A stretch of DNA of 64,000 bases from Echinostoma caproni. Lineage: Eukaryota > Platyhelminthes > Trematoda > Plagiorchiida > Echinostomatidae. The translations under genes and the position numbers were made by a program. The stretch spans positions 25,698 through 89,697 of the forward strand of contig UZAN01039508.1 of NCBI GenBank assembly GCA_900618425.1, in the 5' to 3' direction. The notes under the pieces were generated by a model. That model was not told where the DNA came from. It did not search any database and was given only the letters and a program-made list of their open reading frames with translations. Below are positions 14,301 to 50,300 of this stretch, one piece after another. How positions within the stretch are numbered: position 1 is the first letter of the stretch; every line of letters starts with the position of its first letter.

Positions 14301-17300
14301 AGAAATCATGAATAGCATAAACCTTTCGAAGATCATAACGGATAGCAAACAAGTTGAAGAGCGTCCTGAAGTTTTGACCCTCTATTTTCAGGGTTCCAAT
14401 CTTGATTTTTACGTAAAATATGTTTCTGACGCTCTTTACCAAGGTGAGTAGAGTTGCACAATACATCCAAAGCTTCCACCTGACAATGCATGTTCTCCTG
14501 AACGGACAGTAACTAATAGAAAATTATTCAGGTTTTCTATTTCACCTAGGAATGTCACTTTTTTCCGTCACACTTGTTAATGAATATTAGTTTCTTTACT
14601 TCTGATTTGATGTCCCTTGTGCAATGCAAAAGAAAAACATCAACACCAATGTCTTATATTGCAATTTATTTGGAATCAACTGACCTGATTGCAGTATGGC
14701 GAAAAAATATAATTTCTTTATTTCCACCAGTCTTTTCCACTGCTCACTTTGATCTTTGGGAGATCCTGTTTTGTTCTGGATCATTCGTTAATGCATGCAA
14801 TATCATTATTGTTATTTGCTAGGTAATTAAGAGTAATGACTTATTCAAACGTGCTAGTATTTTAAACAATATGCAGCTAGGTAGTCAAATTGATCAGATG
14901 TAAAATGAAGCCCAGATTAAAATAATGCAAGTGCAAAATAATGCCGCCACCGTCAAACTGAATGCTGTCCAAGCAACTGCGTCAGTTCACCATTTTGAGG
15001 CTCAAAGGCTGGGTATCAATGAGAGTAGGATATTCTAACGGAAACTGATATATAAACGCCGAGAGCAATCGTTTATCTGCTGCCTGAGACAACCCTATTT
15101 CCCCACCATATAGCAGTAATGACCAAACTGTTCCACTGGACTATCACAAAGCTCTACAGAGCAGTAAATATCGTAACACTGACAAATATACTTTAAATTA
15201 TCAAAACAGAAAGCTATTACTCGTTATTTATCAAGATAACTCATCATCGGGAAATATCGATCTCCAAATAATGAATACTTTTACTTGTTATACATGGTTT
15301 CCGGATTTTAGAAGATTTGAGGCAATTTTAAACCAGAAAACAACAGGGTTTCCTACCCTAATGATTTAAGGAATTTCGAAAATCTTCTCAGTGTCTTACA
15401 ATNTTACAATAAGGCAACCATCTTCTCCAAATCAGATAACTCATCTCATGGAAACAGTTCAGAGACCCTTGGTTGTCACAATAACAGGCCAATTATTTTA
15501 AAAACAATTTCAAGCTATACGAAAATGATGAATAGAAAAGTCTCCATTGACATTGGTACTTTGTGTTAATTCTGGATGGAACTGCGCCTTAGGTCCAAAT
15601 CAGGCCCAATTCGCTCATTCAGGAATGACAAACGAAAGAACCGCTGTCAACTAAAGGAGCATTGAACTGAATAACGAGCCACGTTTTGAACGAAGATCTA
15701 GTTTGTGGTAACCATAGGGGAACGTGTCCTTCTTTCCAGCTTGAAGTACCTACTGGCACAAACATGCGCATACAAGTCCTTTATTATGACATATCTCGCA
15801 AGTCGCCGATGTCATGTTGAACGTATGTCGAAAAACTGAAATGCCCTTTGAATTCCTACTGCCTTTTAAAGCGTTGAATTCTTTTGACGTTTTTGATCCT
15901 CCAATTATAGGGCAATTGTTTGAATGGTGACCTCAGAGTGGAAGAAAACAGATGGTCAAATCTGATCAAAACTGATGTCTGCTTTGTTTGAAGGATTCCG
16001 TCCAGTATTTTGATACTGCTCTTTAAATTGTTGAAAACCAAGTTCCATTCAATCAGTTACGATATTCCACTCGAGGCAACATGGGCAGAGGTGGTGGAAT
16101 TATTGAACACGACCCCGATCCATCGTAATTTGACCTTCACCTCTTGTCTACCAAGTACGCGCCAGGTATACACATATACATTTTACCACCTCATATATTC
16201 TGTTTGTTGAAAGCAACCTCTCCAAAATAATGCATACAGCAAGCATTATAAATATATGTAGAACATTGTGTATAGTTTATGGGTCAACATTAGACAGAAT
16301 CGGTAACTTACTCGCTGCTGTGTTTCTGTCACCGATCGTACAACCTCGCTCAAATTGGACAGCATTTGGGTAACATCATTTAAACGAGAATCCACATCGT
16401 TGAATCGTTGAAATTGACTATCAATTTCTTTGAATCGTTTTTCCAATTCCATTCCGATTCCCTAGAATGTTTATGAGGACATAAAACTTTGAGATTCACA
16501 CACATTTGGAAGAGTTCAATCTTCATCATATAACCTTAAAGCCCAGTTTTGTTTGTTTTAAATCCATTTAATAAATCAATACATTTCAATCGAATCGGCA
16601 ACCGAAGATTAAAGCAGTTTCATATACACGGGGAGAAAGGAGTTATACCATGGTTTTTGAATACCAACTGAGGATTACGGAATCCAATACGATGAACTCG
16701 GTCATAATGTCTTGTGATTTTTAGTGTTCCTTTCAAATCTCAGTTGAAAATTCCAAAGCGTATTTGTTTTTTGGCTTCATAAGGCGGTCGAAGTTTTAGT
16801 TCACATTAGACTAGGATTGTGTTTCTCCGATGGTATACTTTTTTGAAAGATTCAAACTATGTGGAGCATGTGGAAAAATGGATAAAAATATGAATGGTTT
16901 GTATGCATGTGAATACCCAATTCCCACAGCGCATGTAAACAACTCATTTGGATTATTCAAAGCAGTTCTCAATTCGCCAACGCGTCCCGCTTCACAAATC
17001 CTCTCACATGCAGTGTGACTGACCGCATTCCGGTAGTAAAATCCACGTTGTGATTAGAACTGCCGAAATGTTTTTCAGTCGATTATTGCATGAGGATTCC
17101 TCTGTTTCACAATTTATTCTGCTCTGACCTGATAACAAAATAGCTCACTGTTTTGACACACACGAATGGCTGTTTGACGGCTCGGTTTTGGGACTGCACT
17201 TTGTATTTAGGTCAAGGTTCTCTAATCAAGGAAAAACACGATTCCGTTTTCCTGTACACGTTGTGCATTCACTGGATTGGGAGACATGTGTTGTGCAAAA

Positions 17301-20300
17301 GGATGAAAAGTGTCTAACTTACAATTTTTTTCCCTGAAGCTCATGATGACAAATGCAAATGTTGTTTTGTCACGTTAAAATATCAATGACACTCTCCCAC
17401 CGATTCTCATTTAGTGAACCGAAAAAAACGGAAAACAGACAAAAATGAGCGAGACGATGAAGCTGATCCAACGGACCGCAAACGCCGTACATTCGATATC
17501 TCAAATCAAAAACTGACCTCAGTCACACTGGACATTTCACTCTTCAAGTCCATAACTGGGCCTTGCCCGGGGCCAGCTCCTCCACCACGAAAGACAACCG
17601 CCCGCGATTCTGCCACACCTCGTTTCCCACTAGCCTTAGTGGAGGGCTCTCGCAAATAGTCCATTGCTTTCATATGTTCCCATTTGACCATCTCCCTTTC
17701 TTTTTTAATATCGGTAAAGCGAACACCTAAAAGTTATGACAGAAAAAAGAGTAAAAATAAAAGCAGGCACCAAAATTAACGGCTATGTATTCAGTTGTTG
17801 ATTCCTCTAAATAAAATTGTGACCCTTTGTTTGAGTTTGTGGTTTTTATGCTAATGACATGTATTAATAATGATATGGATACCAGTCCTTGAGAACCGGA
17901 ACATGAGAAAAAAGTCCTGCGCATATTTGTGAATCATTTGTTATTGTATGAGAAACAATAAGCAACGGAAAAGTACAAAAATAGCGAGTGTGAGAGTTGA
18001 TTCAACTGAGTTGTCTACCGCGGATTTACCAAATTCGGTCTCGGTACACATCACGGATGCTTTATTGCAACATTTTCTGCATCAAAGTGGTGTTTTTAAT
18101 GCCAAACTACACCTTTGATCTTGTATTAGTGTCACCCGAAAATTGTTAAATTGAAGACAGCAAAAACGTAATGCTCGACTAAGCGTTCCCACAGTCAAAA
18201 TATTTCCGAATCACTTTTGAAACACGATTCTGAACATCACAAAAGGCATTTGTTTGAGTACACTCATCCGTTGGCCTTGACATGCGTTGTTCAGCATTTC
18301 AATTTAAATAATCCGCAGTATTGATGAAAAACTGGTTATGGAGTACCACTGATGGGAAGCAATGAATTGCGAATATAACATCAAGCAGTGCTCTGGGGAA
18401 TCCCACTTCGTCTGGTGGTAACGTAGGCTGGACTAAACGCACCAACATTCAAGTCGACGATGTCGAGCATACTGAAATTTCAACACCTCCAATAGGGGTT
18501 CAAATCAAGTTAACTGAAGAGACATAACACTGCCAAGCAACACCGTTTTAATAGGCGGAGTTAAAATTCATGTTTTAAAGACTTTTAAATAAGAGTATAA
18601 CACTGAATTTTCTTTATTGATTGTTTATGAGAAAATTAAAAATATGTCCAATCCTGATGTACCAATCACCACAAAATACTTCTATAGGTATGAACCATCA
18701 ACCAAGAAGCAATAGAGGACAGAAAATGTATTTATAACCCAACGGAATTATAGTGTTTTGTTTCTCGTATTCCTGAACCGCTTAATTATAGGCACAGTTT
18801 AGGATTTTGTGTGGTATGGTAGTAAAATCAATCGAACTCAAATATATGATTGAATGAAGCGGTTCAAAAGCAGCTTCTTAAACTCTATTCAATTTGTCAT
18901 CCCCCCATCCCACTGAAATATTTGTTCACGAATGTATTAAAAATAAACACCTAATGGAACGATGAGAAAAAGCACTATAATATTTTCTTATTGGCAGTTA
19001 TTGTGTGCTCGAGGGAACTCACAAAATGGATTGTGCTTTATATTTTCGTGACTTCTTAGACTGGCGCATCGATTTCCGATTGCTCGATATGCCTCATAGA
19101 AGTGCCAAAAGATGATGATTGGTGGGACCAAGGGTGAGCGGTGTACATAATCGTTGATCATCTGGTAGCGTTGATAGTTCCAATAGTAAGTCGAAGCGCT
19201 CTCTATTTCTTCGTAGGTTTTTCTGATTCAAGACAAAAAAACGTGTACCTATTCAAGACTTGGTCATTTGAATCTGTGATACAGCTTCAAATAAAATCAC
19301 ACTAAAATGACCGAATGTTTTTCTTTTTTGATGGATTCTTGAATACCAATCAACAAGTTTGAGTAACAAATCAATGAAGGAAGTCATTAAACAGTAATTT
19401 TTAAAATAAACTCACATGGATAAAAGACAAACACTCTACCCAGAAATGATTCAAGCATTCTGGTTTCGTCTCACGTTTGTTGATGAACATGATTGTGCAC
19501 CTCCATGTTAAATTCATTATTAAATCTAAAATTTTGGTAACAAATTACTCAATGAAGGTGAGAGAGATAAAAAAGAAAACGGGAAAGCCTAACGGTCATT
19601 GTGAGAACAACCAAATACCAGGAACATGCCACAGCACAGTGTGTACTAATTGAGTATGTAGCTTTATTCATGTGTGAATAACAGGTGAACAGGGATCAAC
19701 ATCATGATCAAGAAAACCGACTGTGCAGTTTTGGGAACCGCAAACCTGACACTTGGAGTAGCGAACTTCTTAAAGCATCAATCAAACGCTCTTGTTGAGA
19801 TAGATAGAGAAGCACCTAAAACCACTAAAGTTGAGAACCAGGGCTCACACATCTGGATAACTGCAGGTACAACCTCCTAGCTACCATTATTTTCCGGTTG
19901 AACAATGTAGAAATTATATCAGCAATGCATTATATCTATTCTCTATTTTGTGCAATCCATCTCTGCATGCCTTGATTCGCAAAACTCTACACTAATTCCT
20001 AGTTCACTTCATTTTGGTGTTAATCTTCCCAATTTTAAGTTGTTTTTCAATATTAAAGATTATTTTCCGCAAATCGAGAGTTCGTTTACTGATTGAGCTC
20101 GGAAGACCCGTGGTTTAATTTATACAAACTTTCAAACCGCAATGTTCAGGCGATAAGTCCAGCCAAATTACCACTCCGGATGTTGTGCGTTCGAACTCTA
20201 CCACCACCAGCACCCAGATTTTCCCATTTCTACTGACCACATGGCAGATCTTTGATTAAACGCTTCCTCCTCACAAAATTATTCGTACCTCATGTATTCA

Positions 20301-23300
20301 TCAAAAAGGAGAAAAATAGCTATAAAACTAAACTGAATAACTGAAATTGATTTCCTGATTAGAATAAAAGAAATAAAGTATTCTATGATACGGTTTCTGT
20401 GATAGTCAAAATTTCTGTCAAGTTGAGAAGTAAAGAGGAGTATCTGGAATGCATACGAGGGGTGCATGACAGAAGGAACGTCAGTGATAATAGAGTTTTA
20501 GTCATATATAACGTTTCAGATAATATATTCTTGCATACAATTTACACAATAGATACTCGCTATATTCCTATGACGGTTTTGGCGTATATGTTAGCTATTC
20601 ACAAACTAAATCTAGTTTTAATTTAGTGGTGGATAACTTTAAAAACAGTTTGCATGCATCCCAAAGTACGGCATGCATTATAGATTTTTGCTGCTGCATG
20701 TCAGGTTTTCCTTGAAATTTCATTGCAATCTGTCTAACGAGCTCAAAGTGGGTTTTATTTGGTAAAGTAAATAGAAGATGGTAGGAATCGTTAATTTATC
20801 ACTCACCCTTCTCATTGGTCCGATGAATGACTACGTTGGACATTTAACGTATTATTGTTGGTGAAGCTGTTCTCCAAATTTCCAAACAAGATAATATCAT
20901 TGAAGTATGCTGTATATTATTCTCGAGCGATTCTCCATGGATTCGTAATAGCTATCACAGTATTCCCTTGGTTAATTTAAAACTCCATTTTTTAGAAGAA
21001 TTTTAAACTGGTAATCGAAGAAAGACAGCTAGACAGGAAAGCGGCAAACGATTCTAATGAAAGTTCAGTCGGGAACATACTTTTGAAGAGCGCAAATGCC
21101 CCCTGCTAATCGAGAATGATAGCTATTTTAGACACATTTGCGAACCGAACCGGGATTACGTCGAAGTAAGAAGGAAGTGAGGGCAAGAATGTCTATTCAG
21201 ATAAACTGAGTAATGTTGTCAGCCCAGAGAACTTTCAACAACTGCTGAACCAAAATACGGGTTGAAGATCTACTATTACAGCTAGTACTATTACTAATAA
21301 TACAGTAGCTGGTCAAAAGAAAGACAGCTTTTTATTCGACAAGAAGAAGCAGTATTAGTTTTGCAAACATATGATTCACTTTGATTTCATGTTACTCCAC
21401 CACACAGGAAGTGAACCAGGACCATAGGTAGGTGATCACAATGGTGCAGATGCACCCGTTAGGTAATGCACATTCGAATCATACGGACTGAGGACAATTA
21501 CAAATTTGGTAGAGCGTAAGAGTACGTTTAGTTTAACAACCAGAATAAAATGACCACATAACATGTACCAAAGAAAACCTTCAGTAATGAGGAATTTTCC
21601 GAGAAAATATCTTTGTTTTGCTTGAATTCACTGGTTTAAGCTGGAGACAGTTAGACTGGTGGATCTTGAAGTACTAAATTTGCTCAAAATTTCATCTAAA
21701 ACGTGCGAAAAAGTATTGATTCTGGCACTCACGAGAACATGGCAATCAGCAAGTTGAACATCAAGATATTGGTCAGCAACACGTAGAATCCAAGCATAAT
21801 TGGGACAAGCCATCGGGCGGTTTTTGTTGGACACATTTGATTTTGGCACATTCGATCTGTGAAATTACCGATTTAAAGAAGACAAACGACAGTAATCAAT
21901 AGCAGTCATTTCAGATGTTATTGATGATAACTTTGAATTTTTATTTCATTTAACTTTTGGTTGATTGAACGTAGACAAGATACATACTTAGATTTGGGGT
22001 ATGTGATTTCCTGGCTCGAAGACCTGCTTAGATATATTACTTGCGTAGCACGAGGAAAGGCAGAATGATTACACGGAATGAACTCAATTTCCTTCGATGC
22101 CAGATTTCGTTGTTAGTATGCTCATGGATCGTTCTTTCTGTTCGTTCTATGAGTCTCAATATGGTACGATAACAATTGCAGAACAAACACATTGGAGACG
22201 GTGCGCTTGATAAATAAATTAATCTGTCCGATAGCATGTCACTTTATTCAACTTATTTCATGTTGTTGGCCCCAAGTCATGGTCTAATTTACCCACCAGA
22301 TGAGTTTACAACATTTTACTTATAGCTGCAATGCTTTACTACATTATTTTCGTGTGTAATTACAAAGGCCACTATAGAGAGAAAGAAAGAGCGGTTGTGA
22401 TGTTGCTGCTCGTGCCCATCCTCAGAGCTATAATTTTTGCCAAACTTGAATAATTAAAGAACACATTTGACGGTTTGAATTCGCTCGCCCAACTTAAGAA
22501 CGATAAATTTATCATTGAAGATTTATCGATAGACAATAAAATTACTGAAGTATTCTACAACACTCTTGCAAATATACGGCACGTGTTGAATAACAAACTT
22601 TTTACTTTATTGAATGCTGAATTTCGCCTACGGAAAGATAATCATATAAAGGAAATTTGGTAAATACAGGTAGGTAGGACAATACATATTCTCCTGTTTC
22701 ATCCCATTTAGTTGTAAACGAAACTTAGTATATTGCTTATTTTACACTGTGATGAGAATTTGTAGTTCCCAAAATTCCAGTGAGAGATATTACTATCAAA
22801 CTCATACGTTTGTTCTAGACTAGAAATGACCAATGCTCAGTCTTTATTTGAAGAAGTATAGCAACAAACCCGAAAAATGCAACTCTCGAGAATCTGGTCA
22901 ACACTGGGGTAAAGATTGGATGAGAAAATCTGTGAAGAGGTTTCTTTATAGTAATCGAGAACCAATCGAAAAGATAATGTAAGAGGATACTGAACTCAGT
23001 GGCAAACACTGTTGTTGCCATGACCATAGAAGATTATTTTCTCATATATATTCCGGCCAATCTTTCTCCCGTTCTCTGCTCCTCTCACCAACTGACTTCC
23101 TGTTTATACTTTCACATCCAAGCTCAATCTAGACACCTCTCTCTCCTCATAAGTACTGCACACACTTCGCACACAGGTTTTATTTATTGATTTATCATAG
23201 ACTGATGGTATCTTTCCAGCCGCATATGTTACGCTTGCGCTCATTTACAAGAAAATGAGGTTATTCACTCGTTTATTCAGTGTATACACAAGTATATGCA

Positions 23301-26300
23301 TTGAATACTGAGGGAAATACATGGAAAAATTCTTTACGTTCACTTTTGTTCGTATATATCAACTATACGTGAACATGTTAGCAGGTGTGCTACCAAACTG
23401 TGTCATGACAAAGCTGGAACTGGTGCAGTCAATTTACGTTCAGTATTTGAGAATTCCAACCACGTGTTGCATTTGTTGTTCCTGTTGTTATTAGATAATG
23501 GAATGTTAGTAAATAAAAATAAACACGAACTAACGTGTACGTTAAATAAGGGCTGATTTGTTGGTTATCCTATGCACTACTTTCAGTGGCGACGATTGGA
23601 GGGTTTTCTATGATTATCAGAAATGCATTTTATATGATAAGCCGCGTTCACCATGCAAACGCACCGTCCAGTTGCAATATGTCAGTCATTTTCATCATCC
23701 TCCACGTACTGAAGACTATCGATCGTTAACCATGTGCTGGATCACCTGTCATACTGACCCGAAACGCCGATAATTAATCTTTAGGTTACTCCACCATTAC
23801 GCAGAAAACCAGACAACAGAATTACCCTAATCATCAAATAATCATGTCAACCCGCCTGGAAAATAGACCGCTTTTGTAACCACTCAATGACACAGATGCC
23901 TGCGTTCTTCTCAACAAGACCTTACTCACTGTTATTCTCCCCTGGCAGTCATTCAACTGACATTATTGTCTGCTTTTCGTACTGCTGTGTCTATCTCGTG
24001 TCTCAAATCTACCACATTGTTGCTGAATACAGTCAGTCCATGTTGTTTGGTTGGGATGCGCGATTAACCACTGATGTGTTTTCCTTGTTCTACGGGCAAG
24101 TCATTCCCCTGTCAGCACTTCAGCTTCATTCTGCGGTGGCGTATTTCATGAGCAGTGGCGGTAACAATTTTTGTTTATCTATAACGTTTACATTTGTGGT
24201 AGCCAAATCATTGGACTTCCAAAAGAGGAGTGATACGCTGAATGAGAATGTAAAGAGAGATAGGGTAATAGTGATCAACCAAGGCACACTCCTTGCAGAA
24301 TCACAGACCATTTTTAAATATGAATACCTTCTTACACCTCCCAGAAAGTGCAAACACGATTAAAAGTTGGGAACAGGGTTGACGATATAACCAAATATGA
24401 AAACAAAAGTGTCCTCATCCATTGACCGAATCAACGAATTGAAACACGGAAGCCAAGCAGTTGCTTGTCTGTTACTTGTCACCATATTTGATACCTGCAT
24501 GAATGAGCTACATAGCCAGTGAAAAGAGCGGAAGGGAAGTGAAAATTGAGGAATCTAGTCCAAAAGAACGACCACATTAGTCGCCTTTTATTCTCTCGCT
24601 TTGCGGACGTTTCTTTCAATTTTGTGCGTGCATTGAAAATGTCTTTGTTTTGCAGTTTGGATTGAATGCGTCTGAGGCCTGATCCAAACGTGTCACGAAG
24701 AGCGAATAATAGAACCTACTCACCCACACCCCTTGGTGTGACTCCACCTTGTGACCATCAAGTCCGAGATGTAGCTCGCTTCCATTCGACACTGCCCACA
24801 AGCCGTCTAAATAAAATTGCGTGCCTAACGTGCCCGGTTAAACGAACCATCCGTTGGGGAGTACGCATAGTCACTGACAGAGCTGCGGCATGAGAAATGG
24901 AACAGGTGTGCGCCGAGTAGGCCAGGATGCAGCACGATCTTACCGGGCATTTGAAACCCACGAAGTTGGAATAAGAGACTGGTTGCATAGAAAGGGGGCT
25001 GGGTGTTCAAGTACAGCGGAAAACTTCTTCACGTACTCGGTAAGAGACAATTCACCAATGTCCGTTAGTTTTGGATTTTTGCAAGACTCGTCCTGTTTCC
25101 TCTATGACTTACTCAATCGTGTCTCAGTAAAAATGTATAAAAGGATGGATCACGTACCATGTGATAGATGCAGACAGGGCCCAAACAACAGATGCCATGC
25201 CTCATTGGGCTACAAACAAGGGTAATTTCAACTGGAAATACAGATCGATAGATCGATAGGTAGATAGATAGATACACAGATAGATGGGGAGTTTGGTAAG
25301 TAATTTTATAGATGGATAGATAGAAAGGTAATAAAACAACTTTTTGAAACCAATTTTATGTTATGCTCCTCACTTTTTCAATTCAATAGTTAACACGGTC
25401 ATTTTGTTCTATTTAGCATGACTTTTCATAGTGAAACTTTCAAGTGACATCAAATAAACAAGCGTACAATCAATCTATCGAAATGGTTGTGAGAGAAATA
25501 AATGACTTTTCAAACTTTTCTGACATCTAGCAGAAGAACAAAAAAGAAACAGTGATGCATCGTTGTGTGAGTTCATGACCAAATTTGAAAACAGGTTGAT
25601 CGCCATCAGAGTAAAAATGTGGGTTGAACAAAACGCTCGAAAAGCTTGTCTATTGGTGCGAGGAACTTACCTTCTCCTTGAAGTGTATCCAAACTGAAGT
25701 CACCAAACATTTGAAAATACGACGTTGTGTACATGGCGAATATAATATCAGAGAATCCCATATGTTTGGTATCAGTGCCTTGGAAAGAAAGATAGAAATT
25801 GGTGTCAGACAATCGTAGAGTGAACGGCTTAAATGGCATATTTGTTGAGAACAAGAAATGCATCCTGTGGTCGTTTGACCGGGTAGTACCCTTCACTTTG
25901 ATTGAATCAGCTATCCTGCTGAAAGTGATTTGGTGAAAAATGTAGGTGTTGCAATCTGAGGATATTCCAAATCTCTTAGAGGGTGCTGCTTGTTTCTAGA
26001 CTCCTAGTAAAACATATCGCCAAATTTTGTGCCACCTGAATTCGTGCTAGTGTTTGATCATAGTACATACCACAATGTAGCCACATTGTCTTCTACAATT
26101 TGTGAAATCTCTGGAACTGTTTGTCGGTCCGCTGCTATTACAAACAATTTCGATCTTGAAACCGCAACCAAAGCATTGATCTTTTCACACTGGAATCACC
26201 CATCAGTGATATCGGTGTGGCCTCGTAACTCAGCTAGTAGAACATGTGCTGTACAAAGCGTAGACGGCCTGAGTTCTAATCTCACTGAAGCTAGTGAACG

Positions 26301-29300
26301 TTTCACAATTCAGATTTCCTTCAATGTAACACAACTATATGAAGAGAAAATTTAAAAAATCTATTCCTAAATGTAACGAATGACGGAATATTGGATGTTT
26401 GAGAGTGCAACATGAGAACGAATGCTCGAAGTTACGATAATGAAATGTGTCCGCATTACCGATCCCCGTGAGAACACTATGTGGAAAGTTATCCGATGGT
26501 CCTGGTTGCTAAATTTGGTATTAAATGTAATAACGATGCGTGTGTTAGAATTTCATAAACGCCTGGTAGCTGAAGTGATATCCGACTACTTAGAGCATCT
26601 CCCTATGTTTCACATCTTGTTTGGTCTAACATTTCCAGCTCCTTGGCCCGTTAGCTCTGTCGGTATCCGTTATAACCAGATTGTCGTAACCATGCGGCTT
26701 GTAACAAAATGATGGCCGTTTTTGTTAAAGGTAAAATTTACAAAGTTCAATGAAGAATACCCAAATATTCCCAAGGACTGCTAATGCTGCCCTTAAAATA
26801 TACCCAACTTTCCAGATGATCCTTGCTGGTCACAGTGCTCTCATACCACAGTTGTTCAACACTCGTCCTGTTGGCCAATCTCGATTAGGAACGTACTTTT
26901 CCCCTTTTAAGGGTGGTGAGATTAAAAAAATAATTCTCCACAGAATGCAAACTGCCGTTCACTTTCAATTTTTATTTGTTGCAGAAGGTTCATTAACACA
27001 AGAGTCACAGGTACATACACCGAATACGACTGAAGTTCAACTACGTAACGTCCATGAAAATCGGATAGTTTGATGACTTATCATCATACTTTGGAAATTT
27101 TGAGGACAGTTAAGTGGATTTGTTTGTGAACCGTCCCGCTGTTTCGGGGTTCATATGTTATCTGTCCAGCCCTGGCACGTGAGCATCTGAGGCCGGTTGA
27201 CGTAGCTGAAATCTTCACATGCATTTGAACAAAGAGAAGACCCTGAAAGTAAGAGACTATGCCATGACCGCAGGAGACAACCATGCAATCAGCAATGGGG
27301 TGATATAATTGAGTGTTATATGCAAAAAAATGAAACAGAATCTGAGCTCTCTCGAAATGGTAATTGACGAGTCAGTAAGCCAACCAGAAACCGCTCACCC
27401 AAAGTCATGTTCTCTTTTGTATACAATCCATTTGGATACGCGATAGACTGAGCTGCAACCGCATAACCGACCATGATCACCGTCAAAATGATCATGAAAG
27501 GGATCAAGTCGTTTGTGACCTGAGGAAAAAAGGTGACAAAAGCGGCGCTGTGAAATATTCGTTCGATTGAAAAACTGTGGTGTGTCGTTTTCAGTTACAC
27601 TTAAGTAAAGGTGTCTAGAGAGTGACGCTTATTTGGAACTGAATAACCATTGACAAATGATCTGTTGATCTATACTTTACTTGTCAATAACCATAACAAG
27701 AGATTACTTCAAAAGCATTACTGTTCCTCGAGCCTACAAACCATCACATACATCCTGTAAAATGTTACGTTTATTCATTTTGTCGTTCAGTGACATAATG
27801 AAGCGACAGATAGAAACGAAATCGAGAGTAGCCTCAATTTATTTTTAATATTCCAGAATGCGTTTTAAAACATGAAACAGGTGAAAGGAAGAAAATTCAT
27901 ACCGTCTAAATAATGACAACGGTAATTATGATCTCGTCTACATCAAATAATTATGGATCCTGAAGGAAAAGACGTATTCCCTCTCCGTCGTACAACAAAG
28001 CACTCACCATTTTCCCGATCATGATAAGTTTTGGCCCGAGAGCAATGTGAAAGCTAAAGGTGTACATCAGACGCGTGTAGAACACGAACAGACTGATTGC
28101 CAAGCAAGTCCGAGACACATCGAGAAACGGATCCGTTAGAATATAGTAACGTTCGTGCACTGAGTCCAACGGCTGGTCATTCCCGGTCCGAACGAGAACA
28201 ATCAGGCGGAGTATGAAACCTACTATGAACAAACCCAGTCCGGCGCAATCCAGTTTGTTCCACCCATCTGAGATGTAGGTGGAAAAACTGATTCCCGATA
28301 GCACAGCCTGTAGTGAAAGTGAACGGCGCACCGTTGAGGTATATGCAAAATTAAGAAATGTGGCATTGTCATATGTCTATAGTAATGAAAAAGTTCCACC
28401 TGGCGCATCGAAAGTGTTCTAACACTGTCAGTGCCACAGGGGACTCGGTAAAAATCAAACAGTTTTGTTACAAGATCGCTTTAATTATTGTTACATCGTT
28501 AGACATCTAGCAAAAGGTTTGGAAAAGTAATCTAAAAATAAATATTTTTATTGCCCTAATACAAACAGTATGGGCCACTCGCCTACTCGTGATAATTTTT
28601 GACTCTGGAACAGAAAAAATATCCTATTGTGATAAATTTTGGCTACGTACGACCACGAGACCGCTTTTTGCTCTTTGTCTGAATTTGATTGGCGGCTTTT
28701 CGACACGTGTGTGTCATCACCGCATCAAAGTTATTCCATTTGAGTTTAAAGAAAACAATGTTCATGCGGTTTCCATCAACACTCTTAGCACTTTCATTCC
28801 GGTACAGTCCGCCCATCTTAGAAAGCTCCTTGTGATTGAGTTTAAGCGACACCGTTGTGAAGTGAACATGGGTATAGAACCTGAGAACAAGCAATTTTAT
28901 TATTCACAAAAATTACCCTCTTGTTTTCCACACAATAAAATCTTCGCGATGAGAACTGCAACTGTTCAGATCAGAGAGCTTTGCTAACAGGTTAACTGAC
29001 GCAAAAATACTGTCGCAATTCTCGCATTAACTTTTTATTCGGCTTTGTCTCAGATTCGGGGACAAAGCGCTTTTCCGTGCACTAGCTTGCACGGTCGTTA
29101 GCCTAAACAACAACTGAAGCAGACCAACTCCATCGCGTTTACCGTCCAGATGGGCAAAACTCTGCTCTACTTATTAATAACCAGACTGGATCTGAGTGAT
29201 GAAACTATCACTGGTTGTTCCAATGCATTATTGTGCGTGTGTCCGTGGAAACACATTGAAATCAGAATGTCTGTGATCTTTTCCGTGTGCAGCTGAATGC

Positions 29301-35300: not shown

Positions 35301-38300
35301 TTGGCTTCAAATCAGGCTGGTTTTTTTATCTGATTTCAAGTTTGATGCGACTCTATATTTTGTTTGAATTATCACTCAGAAGACAGCAGGGAGGTCATCG
35401 ACTCGACCATAGTCGGCCAACCGAATTCATTCACAATAAGGGAATGCATGAGTTTCCATAAACGTTGCTGGTATATACTGTACAACATGGTCTGTTTTGC
35501 TTATTCTGTGAATGAGGGAGAGCGATCTAGCACTTTGGACAAAACGATTGAAACGGCCTCACTTTTCACCATACTGAAGCAGAGACAGCACTCGTTTGCA
35601 ATAAATCTTCATCAGTAGCTCATAACCAGGCGCAAATAGTTACTTCGTATAACACTAAGCTGTGTTTCTATATACTTTCATTCACTTTTCGTCTACAGCA
35701 TTCAGTATTAGTCGAAAAATTCTGTTTGGTTCAGCAGGTGTGATAGATAGATCTTTTGTTTATCCAAAGTACTAATTCCGAATCGAGGTTTGATGTGCAG
35801 CATACGTTGAATATCACTTCAACTGTACTCCAGCTGGGGCAATTTATTTTTTCTGACTATACACCGCGCCTCGTAAACAGTTGTTTTTATTCATCCAAAT
35901 TTGGTTCCTAGTGCATTCACTTTTTTGTATATTGATCTTTCAGTTCCTTATGAGGCTTGTAAAGCGGGATTTTTATCATATTTTTACTCGGTTAGCTCAT
36001 TCTGAAGGTATTGTTTGTAACTTTGGATCACGGCATCGATATGTTTACTGAGTTTGATAAGTTCGTTGCCCAAAGTGATGTCAAACTAAAAGAACTCGCC
36101 GACTGTGATACGTGAATACTAATAAGGCCTGGTTACAGCGTCATACCCACGTAAGTTAAACCTTGTTCTAGCAAACTTCGTATCCAGGTTATTAGCTCAA
36201 CGAAGGGCAGAAAATTTAGGAGGGTAGAATTCCTGTATGGGTTGGAGCTAAAGTGCAGGTTGTCAGAATTTTAGGTGTATATGGAGATCGAGTGACCACT
36301 GCGATTTGTGAATGGCCGTTAGGTCACCAACCGTATCTCCGTTTGGCCGTCCAAAGCTCACCTTGTTTGTGCAATTTCGGTCATGCCATTTACTGTGTGC
36401 CGTTTGGTCGCACGCAGATCCGGTAATCTTGACTAAAGTTCTGAATCGGATGGTTCAGACGGTAAGTGGATATCACACCACATTGAACAACTTTCTCGGA
36501 TTAATTGCAGAGCCAAACTCCTTAAGTTGGGCAAACACTGATAGTAAGACTTTTTCATTGGATGGGGTGCACCTAAACGATTATTCATTCGAGAAAAAAA
36601 TTGATATTGTTCCGTTTCAAGCACAAAACCGTTATGCAGATTTTTGTATTGTCACTTTCCAAGGTCGTATTAAGAATGACGCACATGTTTATTTATATGT
36701 GTATATAAGCATTACAATGAGTAGAACATGAATGACTGGATGAAATTTCTCTGGAAATATATAACTAACCGTACAAAAGACCGATCCGACTTCCAAATAC
36801 CTGTTCAATGTTTGCAATCGAGCTGCTGAATCACCAATAATGCGTTGGCTATATGACAAATTAAGCTTAATGTAACAATAATGCGTTGAGTTAAATGTAA
36901 CCAAACCTTACTTACGAACTTGATAAACTATTTTGTTTTAGTTTAACGTTAACCAAACAAACAACTTGTGACCAAAGAGCTTTTCAGTCGAAGGACACAC
37001 ATGATGTCAGGCATAAAACATAAAAGTAACTGTGAAACCTGCATGGGGATATCAGGTTAACTGGAGGGGGGACTGACAATGAAGTTTTAACATAGCTGGA
37101 ACTTACCCATGCAATCTGAATTGAGGAGGAGGAGGTGCAAAAGAAAAACGGAGACTCAGCAATTTGATAGTGCACATATGCTTATGGAAGATATATATTT
37201 GCACAAAAGGAAAATTCAAGGGATAATTTCAAGTGAATGTATCACGTGAGACAAATTTAAACTGAAAATACCGAAAATAAGACACCCTAGACATTAGATG
37301 TCTATCAATGAATCCACTTTGGCTTGTTTCAGTTAACCTGGTTAATATGGTTTGATTGCATGCCCACGTCTGGGGGAAATTCGACACTTCAATGCTTATG
37401 GAAAAGCCCTGTGCAGGTTTGCAAAATGGAACTTACTTGTTTGATTTCTTCAATGAATAGCGTGATAACCCAAGCAATCACAATGTACTCAACAACGGAT
37501 ATTTCAATCTTGAAATCCACCAAAAGCAGATAACTGAACAGAGCCAGAAATGTTACATAGGAAATCTGTGAAAAAGAAAATCAGCGAGAAATTCCAATGA
37601 ATTCAATTTTTTGATTATTCACAAAATATTTATTCTGCATGATAAATAGTCAAAAATATCTCGGATAATCAAATTATTTACTTTAATTTACCAAAGCTGA
37701 AATTTTCCATCACAACTATCATTTCCTTTCCAATTTGTTCAATGGTGTCTTTGATTTTCATTGCTTCTATACCCTAATTCTTTATTTCCTCATCCATTTA
37801 ATGGCTTATCATTTCCATTTTCACTCACACTCAGCAAGGAACTTTTGGAACACACTACATTACCCCAGTGGAGGCGTCATGTTTGACCAGGTGACAAAGG
37901 CAATCTGACCGATAAAAAAGCACATCTATCCTAACAGTGCAGAGCATGACAATACAGAAGGAGGGCACAAACATTCCACTTCCCCGCAATTTCTTTCCTC
38001 AGAATCCTTGGTGGGAAAAGAAGATTCAGGAAAATTTGAGCCTAATGCAGTGGCTTCTTTAATTCATTTAATCGGAAAATTCCCCCAAAAATTCCTCTTT
38101 ACCTTGATATTGTGATGCCAACATCCTGATTTTGGCATGCGGTTGTGTATGCCGTTGCCTATTTCACTGCGTATTTGAATCTTCTTTCTTCTACTTTTAT
38201 TTGCTTGACTTATCAAAAAACTACTCGTCGCATAATATTGCATTGATAGATTTTATAAAAATAGTCTCAAACTATCCCTATGTAAATGTAAACATATTCA

Positions 38301-41300: not shown

Positions 41301-44300
41301 CGTAGGATATTTACTCAATCGTACCAGGATACGTGATCTCAAATGATTTCGCTAATGGTTGCGGTGGCGTGCAGCATCCGGAATAGGTATCTGTTCCAAT
41401 TAGCAGCCCGTCTTTTTAATGTGAATGGACATGCAGTATATGCAGTATAGTCATTATCATAATTATTCGCTGACCGCAAACTGTAGTTTGCATAATTCGT
41501 AAGTGGCGTGAAGGTATTTCTTTGATGACATGTATTTGTTCCCAAGCTTCAGTGATGTGGTGGTTCATCCCCCAACACACGGTCAAGCTTTGCTCAATTT
41601 ATCCAAGACAGAAAAGCTTCATCGGGTTTATTCACAGATACTATCTGCGCATTTGAAAAAAGTAAATTCCGTCTGGCAAATGGGCCAAAGTATGGAACTG
41701 CTCACATCGAAATGAGTGTGGCAATTTCATACATCTGTATCCACCATTTTCCGTTATTGATGTAAAATGTTAAACAAAATACTAGCTAGAAATGTCAAAC
41801 GGAATAAAATAATGAGAAAACGAGACAAAGACGTTGTGTGACTATTATCAAAGTGACCTAGTCGGATAGAAGAGTGAGTCAAGTCTTGTCAGATGTGTCT
41901 TAAAACTCTGTGAAACATCGCTACGGTTGATTGTTCTTTAAGTTGTCACACGTATAATGAACACCTAAGATCAATTAGGTGAACAACTAAGTTTCCTGAA
42001 TTAAAATGAATTTGTTTAAAGTGCTTAGGCATTTTAATATTTGTTAAAACCTTTGCTGTACTTTGTGTAGTAGATGTTATAAGTTTTGTTCCCAGCTAAT
42101 AATCCGTCGCAATTGATTGGAAATCGATCGTTACGGTCCATTATTTTGTTATATTTCAATAGGCACGAACTACTTGCCTATGTGGATTTCTGAAATATGA
42201 AAACAAAACGAAAACAATTTTTACGGAGTATGCGTTCGTTCCCAACAGGAACTTCAAACTAAAATTTTTCTTGGAAATTATTCGTTTTCAACATACGAAA
42301 CAGGTCATTCAGAATGACTGGTAGTTGGTGTCGGGGGTTCGGTTAACTTACCGTATTGTACACAAATCGTATTACCGGGGCCATGTAGAAGTCTCGAATT
42401 TGTTGAAAATATTCCCTTGTACTAGCGTGAAAACTTTTCCGGAGACTTTTTGAGAAGCAAGCAAGAAAATCACGAAAAAATAAACAGGTTATTACATCCG
42501 TGATGATCAAGATAAAATAAGCACTATTAAAAACAATATTCAAGTATTTATTTGTGAGCCTTCTCAAAGATATTTTTCTGTCATTTTTGAGAGAAAGTGA
42601 GTATAATTTTTAAATGGTTCCATCAAATAAAATGAAGAGTTACAATGGTGTTTGCGAAAGTTGGACAAGTCATTACCGTCACTTGATATGGCGTCTTGTT
42701 TACTCCAGCAATCAGTTAGGCAGAACGAAATATTGACTTGAAAAATCTGGTGTGGGCAGAGACTTAATATCGTAATTGTCTGAGTTTATCTGGTCTTTCG
42801 TGACGAAATATTTTACTGGCATTATCAACCCGGGTAAAACAATTAAATTGCGAGATTCGTTTTAGCCCAAAAATGATAGAGGTCAAAGTGTCTTTTCAGT
42901 TCTATGTTTAAACGCTCTTGTAGTAAATGTTCACAGAAAGTCTGTGAAGAAAAAGTGCTTACGATTGTTAAACCCATGAATAATTACGCTAAACGTTATT
43001 TGGCTGGTTTTGTTTTACTGGTTAAATTGGTAATCAAATGTTTGCATCAAACATTGTTCCAATCGATTGTTTTACCATTCAGTTGATGTGTCCTTTGCTA
43101 GGCTCAAACAACTCAGAAAAATGTCGCGATTGCGGAGATTTCGACAGTCATCATTCATTTGATGTCCTCGAGCGTATAAAATCGCCCGAGGATGAAACAG
43201 CACAATCGTCCTAATGCCTCTTTGTCTCATGGATCTAGATTCGTCCAGAACCTTAGTTATCCGTCATCGTCTAATCTCCGGAGGGTTTTTTGTTTCCAAG
43301 TCGAAAAAAGATGCAGCTAGTTAGAATGGCTATAATCACAGTAGGGGAATTTGATATACAATTTTACGGTATGGACTTCTGAGTCGCTCAGGAACAGCAA
43401 ACTCACATAGAGTTGAGTGCATCTTGCAGAAACCCACCAACGAAGGCATAGCATTTAGCAGTTTTGGTTTTCTGAATGTCATTTTAGGTCTTCTACTTCA
43501 AATTTATTGATTAAATTAATGATTTTGCCATCAATATTTTGTGATTAAATTGAGTTTAGGGATGAAAAATTGAATGAAATCGAAAAACACGGTGAAAAAC
43601 TGCCCGGATGACGTTGTTTCGTTCACGAACTCAAAATTCTAGTGATGCCATCCGGAACGTAAGACCACTACCGGAATAAATTGATTATTTCGTTGTTGAC
43701 AGCCCTTTTCGACAACAAAATAGGGATACAGGAATAATCCCACGGGTTGGCTAGATATAGGCTTCAGAGATGACAAGTTTCGCATGAAAGTTTTTTAATC
43801 TGCACAGCTGATCTTCCTGTCGATTTGAAACACGATGGGGAGACGCTTTACCTTTATTCAATTTTTGTTTAGTTCTGTGATGATTTTTCACGAGTAATCC
43901 ACCTCAACTGTGAGCTGTTTTAACATTAAGGACAGGCAAAATTTCTCAAAGGGGATTTATTTCTATTGCGCTTAGTGACATAGACTGGGCTCAATGATCT
44001 TGTGCCCCAGAGACAAATCATTTAGCTGAGCTAATATCTAGGGCATTCGATTTTAAATTTAGGTTCCTCGTTGTAGGTCATCACTTGTGGGTTCAGTAGA
44101 AACAAACAGTATACCAATCCGTTTTCTAAGTTTTGTGTACTGTCCAATTAGGCGGATTATTTGGTTCATTACAGACGGAAACAATCTGTTATTGATCCCG
44201 GAAACAGCATCATTACAAATCTTTGACCATGTTGTTTTGAGATTGTGCCGTAGGGTACGCAGCAAAGCGAATCAGTGTTCGCTATTCAAAGTTCCAACCA

Positions 44301-47300: not shown

Positions 47301-50300
47301 AGTGAAAACATAGCAAAATGACATCTTAAATTGATACTTGGACATCTTAAATTCATATTGCGACATCTTAAAGTGGATTTTGGACATCTTAAACTGAAAA
47401 AGGTCTAGATGTTAAGAGATCTTAGGTTAAAGTTTCACTGAAAGCTGTCCAAAAGATTTCAATATATATATATGTATGTTTCTCCAATCCCAGCATTTTA
47501 TCTCTAAGCACAGCTAAAATATTTTATACGATTGCGTGAATTCGAATGATAAATATTGATTCAAAATATATCAGCTCACTGAATCAGACAGAGGCACATA
47601 CGTAACCCCTAAACTGCTCAAGTTGTTAATGCATTCGGAGCTAATCGGATTTTGGTTCTTCTCATTGTTTTCCATCAGCTTGATAGAAGGTTAGGCGAGC
47701 ACGTGCACTATCTGAGTCATTTTATTTCCATCGCCATTGTATATTCTTGCTCAATTTACTTGAAAAAACGAAGCCAACAAAACATTGTGTGGGATGTGGT
47801 CAGGTGTTTCCTACTGTCCCCGGTTGTAACTCACGAGTGTATCAGCATTAATCAATAAAATGTATGCGATAAACCACATCAGATCCGGTCCAGTTTTCAT
47901 AGAATGCCACACCCAAAAGCGTGATTCACGTCTGTAGGGCGTCAGAGAATTTTCAAGCTTAAGAAGTGTGATGTGCAACAGATAGCGACAGATCAGTAAG
48001 TCTATGACGAATCACGTAACATGACATGATAAAAGAAAAAAGTATTTTTCGGGGTGGATTAAATAACGGATAACCTCAATGAGAAAAAAAATGCAATGGG
48101 GATAACGTACTTCTTCCTCGCCGACTGGCTGAGCTTTCGGTTTGGCAAGGATGATTTTTGGAATGAGAAACGGCATTGTCAGTCCGCATATTATGCCCAA
48201 AAAGTACTAAAAATTAAAACAAAAGGATCAGTTTCAAATAACTACTTGTTAGTATAAAACAAGTGATAGACCTTAATAAGTTCTTTTTGAGGCAACCAAT
48301 CAATGCTGTATGCAAGTGAAATGTGTACACAATGCCCCAGTGAATGGGTCTGTATCCAGGTAAAAGAACATCAATAATACTTTTGGTACGTTTGGTGAAG
48401 AGTAACTATGACATTAATCCGGAAAACGCTCACTGTTCTCCTTTTCGAACTAGGCATTAAGTACAAAAACCCAAACTGCAAAACGTTATTTCCCGTTTTG
48501 TAGTCAGAAGAAACCCTATTAAAGAGCTCCAAATCAAGGCAGCGTGTAGATGGGTGGATCCAATGCAAAGAAGAACAGTTTGGCAATTCACATGGGTCAA
48601 AACAGAAAACTCCCATTGATGGTGTCATCACAACTTGCTGTTCGTTTAGCATACTTAATCTGGTACAATATATAAAGAGTCATGCCGTTCTGTCTTCACG
48701 TCAAAGTAATCTATTTTTGTGAAGCTTAATTTATGTAGCAGTGATATGGAATTCCGTCAATGTTCATGTTTTCAATTGGACTTTATCGGTGAATAAGATG
48801 GACAGAGATTAACTGTCTCCATTGGGTGTTCGGGATCCCGCCCTTCTCCCGAGAACCACTTTTGGCTTCCACACGCGCAAAATTGTTAAAATGATTATGA
48901 CTGAATAAGTTTTCCCAGAGTGCGTTGAATTACATCAAACACACATTGCATCTGTTCCGTATGGACAGTGTCAATCTGGCAGTTACTGCACTATTACGCA
49001 TTACCATATGTTGATGATTTTTGTTAAGTAGGGTTGTTACAAGAATGTATTTCAAAATGTAATATAAGCGAACAATGAAATACTATTAGTTGGTCAAATC
49101 AGTAAGAAATAATTATCAGCGGTCACGAACATATTGAAATTTAAAGTGAACGTACTCGAAAGACACTGTTCTTTGTAGACAGATTTCCACTCCACGTATT
49201 CGTTAAAAAGTCTTGACAGCAAGGATGAGCCATGAATTTGATGCTTTGACCCTCAGCTGCCAGCTTGATCACTGAGCTACGACCGTAGTACGTCAGTTCA
49301 TGGTTGATTATCAGTTGAGTTCGATGTTCATCTTCGCGGTAGCATTCATTTAGTACACCTTCAGCGCGTTCCTGAAAATTCCTATCGACAGAATTGAACC
49401 GGATTATTGAACATTTTGCCGTGTGGAAAGCAATGAAAATTGTGCAGGAGACGTTAAACACGCAATGAAAATTTAAAAAAATGTGTCGTATAATATTTGT
49501 TTACCATGGGTACTTTCACACCTCTGGAAGCATATTTTTCAAAACAAAACTTCTTTAAAAACGAAGGATATGTTGAAACACAAACTCTTTCTATGAGTTC
49601 CGTCTGATTCTCTTCTATAACAGCTATTAGTCTTCGAAATTTACTGGTTGAATTCCCGGTAGGACGGTACCTCGTGAAACATTTAAGAAACTATTCATAT
49701 ACTATTGTGACGATTTACGCCAATTGTTATTAGGTCCTCTGGGGTATGTGCATACGTTTGGTGAGATGTTTTATGAACTCAAATCAACCAGTTCCATTAT
49801 TGGTTTAATTGTGTGTTTGTTTTTCAAACGATATTCATTAATACACTTTTACTGAATCAAAATCACGCACCTCGGTTACAGCCTTTTCGAGAAAGAGATC
49901 ATACTTTCTACATACTTTCCTTGGGTAAGGCCAATTTGGGGTTCGATTATCCATTCCCCCAAATAGGCTTTTTATTTGCAGAAACATAGTAAATTATTGC
50001 ATGAAGTATCACCAACGTTGAAATAGTTTCACTGAAGTTTCACCGAAGTCATTCCAACTGAATCAACTCGAATACGGCTCATCACCGAAGACCTATCTAA
50101 AGAACGGGAGTTTTTGCTTACTCGGACGTATTGGTTTCTTCGGTTGTGAGAAACAGGCTAATTTCAAGTTTCATAACAAACACAATGAGAATGATCAGTT
50201 ACATAAAAACTCAGATTAAAAAAGATGAGAAAATTAGACCTAATTAGAAATTAACGTTGGCGATTTCTTCCATTACGGACTACTCCAACCAACCCTGGTC

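What the first reader, a model, noticed from the sequence alone, without database searches (positions are those of the whole stretch)
37437..37565. Threonine in S1 of a TRPM2-like fluke channel: possible natural praziquantel-insensitivity signature
Seen: S1 reads V-T-F-L-A-L-F-S-Y and this is its only Thr. Known: the praziquantel target in schistosomes is a TRPM2-like channel with a NUDT9-H domain, and the Fasciola orthologue is reported insensitive because an Asn in the S1 part of the voltage-sensor-like pocket is Thr. Inferred: this gene is that orthologue and this Thr is that residue, pointing to a fasciolid fluke.
Basis: partly seen in the sequence, partly recalled or inferred. Interest (0 to 1): 0.78.

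Follow-up and report, generated by a model that had tools for sequence, protein, structure and literature searches.

The report
Fluke praziquantel-target channel, drug-contact asparagine intact
This stretch of a parasitic fluke's genome holds part of the gene for TRPM_PZQ, the channel that praziquantel acts on, but the threonine that was flagged is not the drug-insensitivity residue: the real position carries the ordinary asparagine, so the gene looks like that of a drug-responsive fluke and not like Fasciola.

Summary
The exon at 37437-37565 (minus strand) is real. It encodes the second half of S1 and the start of S2 of a TRPM2-like channel. The gene is a TRPM_PZQ orthologue: 85-88% identical to five trematode orthologues over 363-368 compared residues, with the TRP-helix Asp and S4 Thr reported for trematode TRPM_PZQ.

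The residue claim fails. S1 is split by an intron, and the residue aligned with S. mansoni Asn1388 (His in cestodes, Thr in Fasciola) lies in the preceding exon. There it is Asn (codon AAT, 42357-42355). The flagged Thr (codon ACA) is six residues further on. It is Thr in Schistosoma rodhaini and Trichobilharzia too, Ala in opisthorchiids and Leu in cestodes.

A 9-base micro-exon (Ile-Ala-Trp, 37115-37107) also fits the gene. With it, the Asn-to-S4-Thr spacing is 130 residues, that of S. mansoni Asn1388 to Thr1518; the flagged Thr gives 124.

So this is a standard fluke channel with the praziquantel-permissive state at all three published determinants. The sequence argues against Fasciola.

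The parts
60429..60529 (-). exon: cytoplasmic MHR4 region (EPIAGALLASILLTSLGNKTDDFTDKEDYRSFA), upstream-most exon found in the window
   Evidence: tblastn of four trematode orthologues, 94-97% identity, best E 1.2e-13; end set by the joined frame
49156..49381 (-). exon: TRPM2-like domain (MHR4)
   Evidence: Pfam PF25508 E 4e-8; TRPM2 structures E 1.6e-11; 90-93% to trematode orthologues
48111..48206 (-). exon: YFLGIICGLTMPFLIPKIILAKPKAQPVGEEE, pre-S1 helical region
   Evidence: tblastn 58-88% to trematode orthologues
42352..42445 (-). exon: pre-S1 and first part of S1, ends FYMAPVIRFVYNT|; its 5' boundary is less sure than its 3' boundary
   Evidence: tblastn 69-74% to three of four trematode orthologues; no hit with the Clonorchis model P0007, which lacks this exon; open joined frame
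42355..42357 (-). Asn codon AAT aligned with S. mansoni Asn1388 / cestode His / Fasciola Thr1270: the praziquantel-contact position of S1
   Evidence: alignment, spacing
37437..37565 (-). exon: second part of S1, S1-S2 loop, S2 (the exon of the finding)
   Evidence: 77-80% to trematode orthologues
37551..37553 (-).
37107..37115 (-). 9-base micro-exon ATTGCATGG (Ile-Ala-Trp) between S2 and the S2-S3 linker
   Evidence: the same three residues at this junction in 5 of 19 aligned relatives; 1 of 33 AG-9nt-GT candidates in the 9129-base intron encodes it, with gtaagt donor; motif with splice sites, chosen after it was seen, 1 match in window and 0 in 100 shuffles
28008..28307 (-). exon: S2-S3, S3, S4 (...FYTRLMYTFSFHIALGPKLIMIGKM)
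   Evidence: 78-79% to trematode orthologues
28059..28061 (-). Thr codon ACC aligned with S. mansoni Thr1518 (Ser in Echinococcus)
27399..27519 (-). exon: S5
   Evidence: 97.5% to trematode orthologues
25671..25778 (-). exon: pore helix region
   Evidence: 73-82% to trematode orthologues
21733..21856 (-). exon: post-pore and S6
   Evidence: 85% to trematode orthologues
19023..19222 (-). exon: TRP helix (QRYQMINDYVHRSPLVPP)
   Evidence: 87-96% to trematode orthologues
19150..19152 (-). Asp codon GAT: acidic gatekeeper residue of the TRP helix (Asp in trematode and cyclophyllidean TRPM_PZQ, Glu elsewhere)
   Evidence: PMC10868838 section 11, PMC11731825 passages
17518..17726 (-). exon: post-TRP C-terminal region
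   Evidence: 91-94% to trematodes
16312..16461 (-). exon: coiled-coil region (judged by eye)
   Evidence: 77-80% to trematodes (the matched stretches include some intron)
5956..6173 (-). exon: C-terminal linker with proline run
   Evidence: 67-75% to three of four trematodes; no hit with P0007
2091..2331 (-). exon that leads into the NUDT9-H domain in the orthologues (HRLWRIAPFNFEKYPGMRMNVPPEKMAWT); the domain itself was not found in the window
   Evidence: 70-83% to trematodes; the O. viverrini protein from MAWT onward matches NUDT9 ADP-ribose pyrophosphatase E 2.8e-33 and TRPM2; this exon alone matches no solved structure

Best explanation
The window carries, on the minus strand, the stretch of a fluke TRPM_PZQ gene from MHR4 to the edge of NUDT9-H: a TRPM cation channel whose S1-S4/TRP-helix pocket is the reported praziquantel site. 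At the three published determinants it has the praziquantel-permissive trematode states: Asn at the S1 contact (Asn1388 position), Thr in S4 (Thr1518 position) and Asp at the TRP-helix gatekeeper. Shown: gene identity, exon structure, residue alignment. Inferred: that it forms a channel, that praziquantel would open it through an Asn-carbonyl hydrogen bond, and that the source is not Fasciola. The flagged Thr is an ordinary variable S1 position, expected from helix geometry to lie on another face.
For: Orthology: over the S1-to-TRP region the window is 85.4-87.8% identical to five trematode orthologues and 78-80% to two cestodes, against 42% to the second nudix-type TRPM of Schistosoma rodhaini. 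That second set has its own 100/100 branch. Published TRPM_PZQ traits map onto the window's group: cestode His in S1 (2 of 2 cestodes), Ser in S4 of Echinococcus, Asp gatekeeper in 5 of 5 trematodes and Echinococcus, Glu in Sparganum and the 11 other rows that can be scored (papers). Position: the window has Asn in that column, codon AAT. Spacing from this Asn to S4 Thr is 130, as in S. mansoni (1388 to 1518, PMC10641913, passages read); the flagged Thr gives 124. The same Asn is aligned in a TRPM5 and a TRPM2-like solved structure. Codons: ACA and ACG are not one base from Asn, as the published Fasciola codon must be.
Against: Neither the S. mansoni nor a Fasciola protein was retrieved under its own name; S. 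rodhaini and Trichobilharzia stand in. Spacing is not uniform: both Opisthorchis models give 127 because they lack IAW, and E. multilocularis gives 129, not the 130 reported for E. granulosus, although its FVYHTISY His is the only His in that S1. The 130 of the window depends on accepting the micro-exon; without it the value is 127. The window has Thr directly before the conserved S4 Arg (FYTRL) where 19 of 19 relatives have Ile, Val, Met or Leu, so an unforeseen pocket effect is possible. In the tree the branching inside the orthologue group is open and the program warns that long branches meet. No functional data.
Confidence: 0.95

Rival explanations
1. The flagged Thr is the Fasciola-type Thr1270 and the gene is a naturally praziquantel-insensitive fasciolid channel.
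For: The gene is indeed TRPM_PZQ of a fluke, and there is a Thr in the S1 exon.
Against: The S1 alignment puts Asn, not this Thr, at the position; the same Thr occurs in S. rodhaini and Trichobilharzia; spacing 124 instead of 130; codon ACA is not one base from Asn.
Confidence: 0.01
2. The gene is another nudix-type TRPM paralogue of flukes, not TRPM_PZQ, so the praziquantel residue rule does not apply.
For: PMC11731825 (passages) says two further schistosome TRPMs carry a nudix domain; one such set was retrieved (P0022-P0028).
Against: That set is only about 42% identical to the window (P0024), has Glu at the gatekeeper and Ile in S4. The window has Asp and Thr, the states published for trematode TRPM_PZQ.
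Confidence: 0.03
3. The window is from Fasciola itself and this individual or assembly carries Asn at the position, against the published Thr.
For: The species is not identified; nothing in the window excludes a fasciolid.
Against: PMC10868838 (section 9) reports Thr in both F. hepatica and F. gigantica. Asn is the usual trematode state: the four of five trematode TRPM_PZQ rows that can be scored have it, none of them Fasciola.
Confidence: 0.03

Closest known systems
TRPM_PZQ of Schistosoma / Trichobilharzia (P0011, P0006)
   Same: S1 FVYNTxSYxTFL with Asn at the 1388 position and Thr at the flagged position; Asp gatekeeper; S4 RLMYT; IAW residues
   Different: 14% of residues in the S1-TRP region; window has Thr instead of Ile before the S4 Arg, and Ser in SFSTYISD where five trematodes have Arg
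TRPM_PZQ of Opisthorchis / Clonorchis (P0012, P0013, P0007)
   Same: Opisthorchis closest by identity (87-88%), Clonorchis 85%; same Asn in the two Opisthorchis rows, same Asp and S4 Thr in all three
   Different: Ala instead of Thr at the flagged position; the deposited Opisthorchis models lack IAW and the Clonorchis model lacks the exon that holds the Asn
TRPM_PZQ of Fasciola hepatica / F. gigantica (published, PMC10868838)
   Same: same gene family member
   Different: published Thr1270 at the position where the window has Asn; Fasciola sequence itself not retrieved here
Second nudix-type fluke TRPM (P0022-P0028: schistosomatids and Calicophoron)
   Same: TRPM with the same precomputed C-terminal Pfam family PF25969 as the TRPM_PZQ relatives; Asn in S1 in the five members aligned
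   Different: 42% identity (P0024), Glu gatekeeper, Ile in S4, long S3-S4 loop in the five aligned

Membership tests
TRPM_PZQ | Closest relatives are flatworm TRPM_PZQ orthologues rather than other TRPMs | tested here: met
   85-88% to five trematodes, 78-80% to two cestodes, 42% to second nudix TRPM; tree, inner branching open
TRPM_PZQ | Asp at the TRP-helix gatekeeper (trematodes and cyclophyllidean cestodes) | tested here: met
   GAT at 19152-19150; column: Asp 6, Glu 12, gap 1 of 19
TRPM_PZQ | NUDT9-H domain at the C-terminus | tested here: inconclusive
   only the exon that leads into it (2091-2331) is in the window; that exon alone gives no solved-structure match and Pfam gave no NUDT9 hit on the joined part; the domain itself is present in the O. 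viverrini orthologue
TRPM_PZQ | TRPM SLOG/MHR N-terminus | tested here: inconclusive
   MHR4 (PF25508) found; no SLOG hit in three minus-strand frames of 42.4-64 kb and none with five orthologues by tblastn, presumably beyond the window
TRPM_PZQ | Opened by praziquantel | not testable with these tools
   needs expression and Ca2+ or current recording
Fasciola-type praziquantel-insensitive TRPM_PZQ | Thr at the S. mansoni Asn1388 position | tested here: not met
   Asn, codon AAT 42357-42355
Fasciola-type praziquantel-insensitive TRPM_PZQ | Thr codon one base from Asn (change at codon position 2) | tested here: not met
   the two S1 Thr codons are ACG and ACA; statement in PMC10868838

The most novel reading that the evidence does not exclude
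The window is from a fasciolid outside the published insensitive species, or from an unsampled Fasciola lineage, that keeps the ancestral Asn. That would show the insensitivity change arose late within the family and is not a family-wide trait.
Probability: 0.15. Interest if true: 0.4.

Novelty: new member of a known kind. Interest (0 to 1): 0.2.

Why it matters
The review calls for cataloguing TRPM_PZQ variants as a watch on praziquantel efficacy (PMC10868838, section 9). Here a tool-free reading picked the wrong Thr because S1 is split across two exons. The case shows that such calls need both exons and the 9-base micro-exon: the Asn lies 4.8 kb upstream of the exon that looks like S1, and one deposited model (Clonorchis, P0007) lacks that exon altogether. 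If the reading is right, this species should be treatable as far as the target is concerned.

Tried and rejected
Thr of VTF as residue 1388: rejected by alignment, spacing and codon. Thr of YNT (ACG) as residue 1388: rejected; one residue off, Thr or Ser in 15 of 19 relatives, codon not one base from Asn. Tyr of ISY as residue 1388: rejected; Tyr in 17 of 19. Window as a paralogue: rejected. Spacing without the micro-exon gave 127, which first left the assignment open; finding IAW removed the gap.

Led nowhere: Rfam gave 0 families. In the held library 0 papers hold Y1678 with TRPMPZQ, 0 hold TRPM with praziquantel and Fasciolopsis, 0 hold the letters FVYNT. Two primary papers (PMC9910428, PMC8855674) are not held, so the residue facts come from a review and later papers: PMC10868838 (outline, sections 9 and 11, passages), PMC10641913, PMC12718081 and PMC11731825 (passages only). 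The S. mansoni R1514 to Y1678 spacing (164, as in the window) rests on recalled residue numbers and is not used as evidence. The TRPM8 residue numbers that guided the search were recalled too, and so was the link of PF25969 with NUDT9; one search did not return that family for P0012.

Full report
What is there. Using fluke orthologues and splice sites I found 15 exons of one gene between 60529 and 2091, about 775 residues, roughly a third of the 2218-residue O. viverrini orthologue. One or more short linker exons between 48111 and 42445 were not found. The N-terminal SLOG part and NUDT9-H itself were not found in the window. The pre-S1 to pre-NUDT9-H part joins to an open frame of 634 residues without stops, with Ion_trans at E 2e-13. 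MHR4 gives PF25508 at E 4e-8. The last exon, 2331-2091, ends in MAWT; in O. viverrini the protein from there on matches NUDT9 (E 2.8e-33) and TRPM2 structures, while this exon alone matches none.

Which channel it is. The first protein search, limited by length, gave 5 hits. A search that admits full-length proteins gave 25: Trichobilharzia, Clonorchis, Schistosoma rodhaini, Opisthorchis, Taenia, Echinococcus, Sparganum and Macrostomum first, then a second fluke set (schistosomatids and Calicophoron) at 50-62% over about half of the query. A third search gave 27. I aligned 19 of the 50 relatives then held. The 31 left out are P0001-P0005, P0008-P0010, P0014, P0020, P0022, P0028, P0029, P0031, P0033 and P0035-P0050: partial models, isoforms of P0011, one more Macrostomum row, and distant animal TRPs. 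Of those left out, P0008-P0010 have Asn and P0020 has Ser at the S1 column; the others were not scored there. Identity over the S1-to-TRP region is 85.4-87.8% to five trematodes, 80 and 78% to two cestodes, 59% to two Macrostomum rows and 42% to the second S. rodhaini TRPM. In a tree of these 20 rows the second schistosomatid set sits on a long, 100/100 branch, the order of branches within the orthologues is open, and the program warns that long branches meet.

Three published features identify the TRPM_PZQ set, and the window follows each of them. The TRP-helix acidic residue is Asp in trematodes and cyclophyllidean cestodes and Glu elsewhere (PMC10868838 section 11; PMC11731825 passages). 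In the alignment it is Asp in 6 of 19 rows (5 trematodes, Echinococcus), Glu in 12, a gap in 1, and Asp in the window. S. mansoni Thr1518 is Ser in Echinococcus (PMC10641913 passages). In the alignment it is Thr in 6 of 19 (5 trematodes, Sparganum), Ser in 2 (Echinococcus and the echinoderm Amphiura), Ile in 10, Val in 1, and Thr in the window. S. mansoni Asn1388 is His in cestodes (PMC10868838) and Thr in Fasciola (PMC10868838 section 9; PMC12718081 passages).

The S1 residue. The cestode His falls in the motif FVY-H-TISY, the only His of that S1. In the same column 15 of 19 rows have Asn, 2 His, 1 Ser, and 1 (Clonorchis) shows a misplaced Glu because its gene model skips the exon. None has Thr. 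The flagged Thr (ACA, 37553-37551) is six residues later. That column has Thr in 4 of 19 rows (S. rodhaini, Trichobilharzia and two Macrostomum), Ala in 5, Leu in 7, Val in 2 and a gap in 1. Six residues along a helix is a turn of about 240 degrees, so it should face elsewhere; this is inference from helix geometry, not a model.

Spacing as a second test. S. mansoni Asn1388 to Thr1518 is 130 residues. The first join gave 127 from the window's Asn. S. rodhaini, Trichobilharzia, Clonorchis and both cestodes carry Ile-Ala-Trp between S2 and (A/S)VLSG, so I looked for a 9-base exon in the 9129-base intron. Of 33 AG-9nt-GT candidates one encodes IAW, at 37115-37107 with donor gtaagt. The motif with its splice sites, chosen after it was seen, occurs once in the window and in 0 of 100 shuffles. 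With it the spacing is 130 from the Asn and 124 from the flagged Thr. S. rodhaini (4 isoforms), Trichobilharzia and Sparganum also give 130; O. viverrini and O. felineus, whose models lack IAW, give 127; three of four scored Macrostomum rows give 127 and one 123; the four scored rows of the second schistosomatid set give 199-205. E. multilocularis gives 129 where 130 is printed for E. granulosus; the alignment puts a one-residue gap in its S3-S4 loop.

Codon test. The review states that S. mansoni and F. hepatica differ by one base at codon position 2, so the Fasciola codon is ACC or ACT. The two Thr codons of the window's S1 are ACG and ACA.

How it most likely works. By the papers seen, TRPM_PZQ is a TRPM cation channel; praziquantel is modelled in the S1-S4/TRP-helix cavity with the S1 Asn hydrogen-bonded to the drug's inner carbonyl (PMC10868838, section 9). 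The window has the permissive states at the three determinants named, so the expectation is a praziquantel-responsive channel. This is inferred, not shown. One caution is a Thr directly before the conserved S4 Arg (FYTRL, 28076-28074), where none of 19 relatives has Thr.

Species. Asn argues against F. hepatica and F. gigantica as published. Interest is low: a correct gene call, a wrong residue call, an ordinary orthologue.

Noticed in passing
37107-37115: A 9-base micro-exon (Ile-Ala-Trp) 321 bases downstream of the S2 exon; the three residues occur in the schistosomatid, Clonorchis and cestode orthologues but not in the deposited Opisthorchis models, which may be a model error or alternative splicing.
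   Followed up: partly
28074-28076: Thr directly before the conserved S4 Arg (FYTRL); Ile, Val, Met or Leu in 19 of 19 aligned relatives.
   Followed up: partly
P0007 (Clonorchis sinensis protein): The deposited Clonorchis model jumps from the pre-S1 region straight to ISYMAF and so lacks the exon that holds the praziquantel-contact Asn; a residue survey on that model would miss it.
   Followed up: no
33296-33771: Assembly gap (run of N) inside the intron between the S2 and S3 exons, next to an AT dinucleotide repeat.
   Followed up: no
10691-11384: Two AGTC tetranucleotide arrays (31 and 15 copies) that flank a 504-base run of N (10817-11320), probably one long array that the assembly could not cross.
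   Followed up: no
1-660 and 3500-4350 (minus strand): Reading frames that look by eye like retroelement endonuclease and reverse-transcriptase remnants; three of them gave no Pfam hit.
   Followed up: partly
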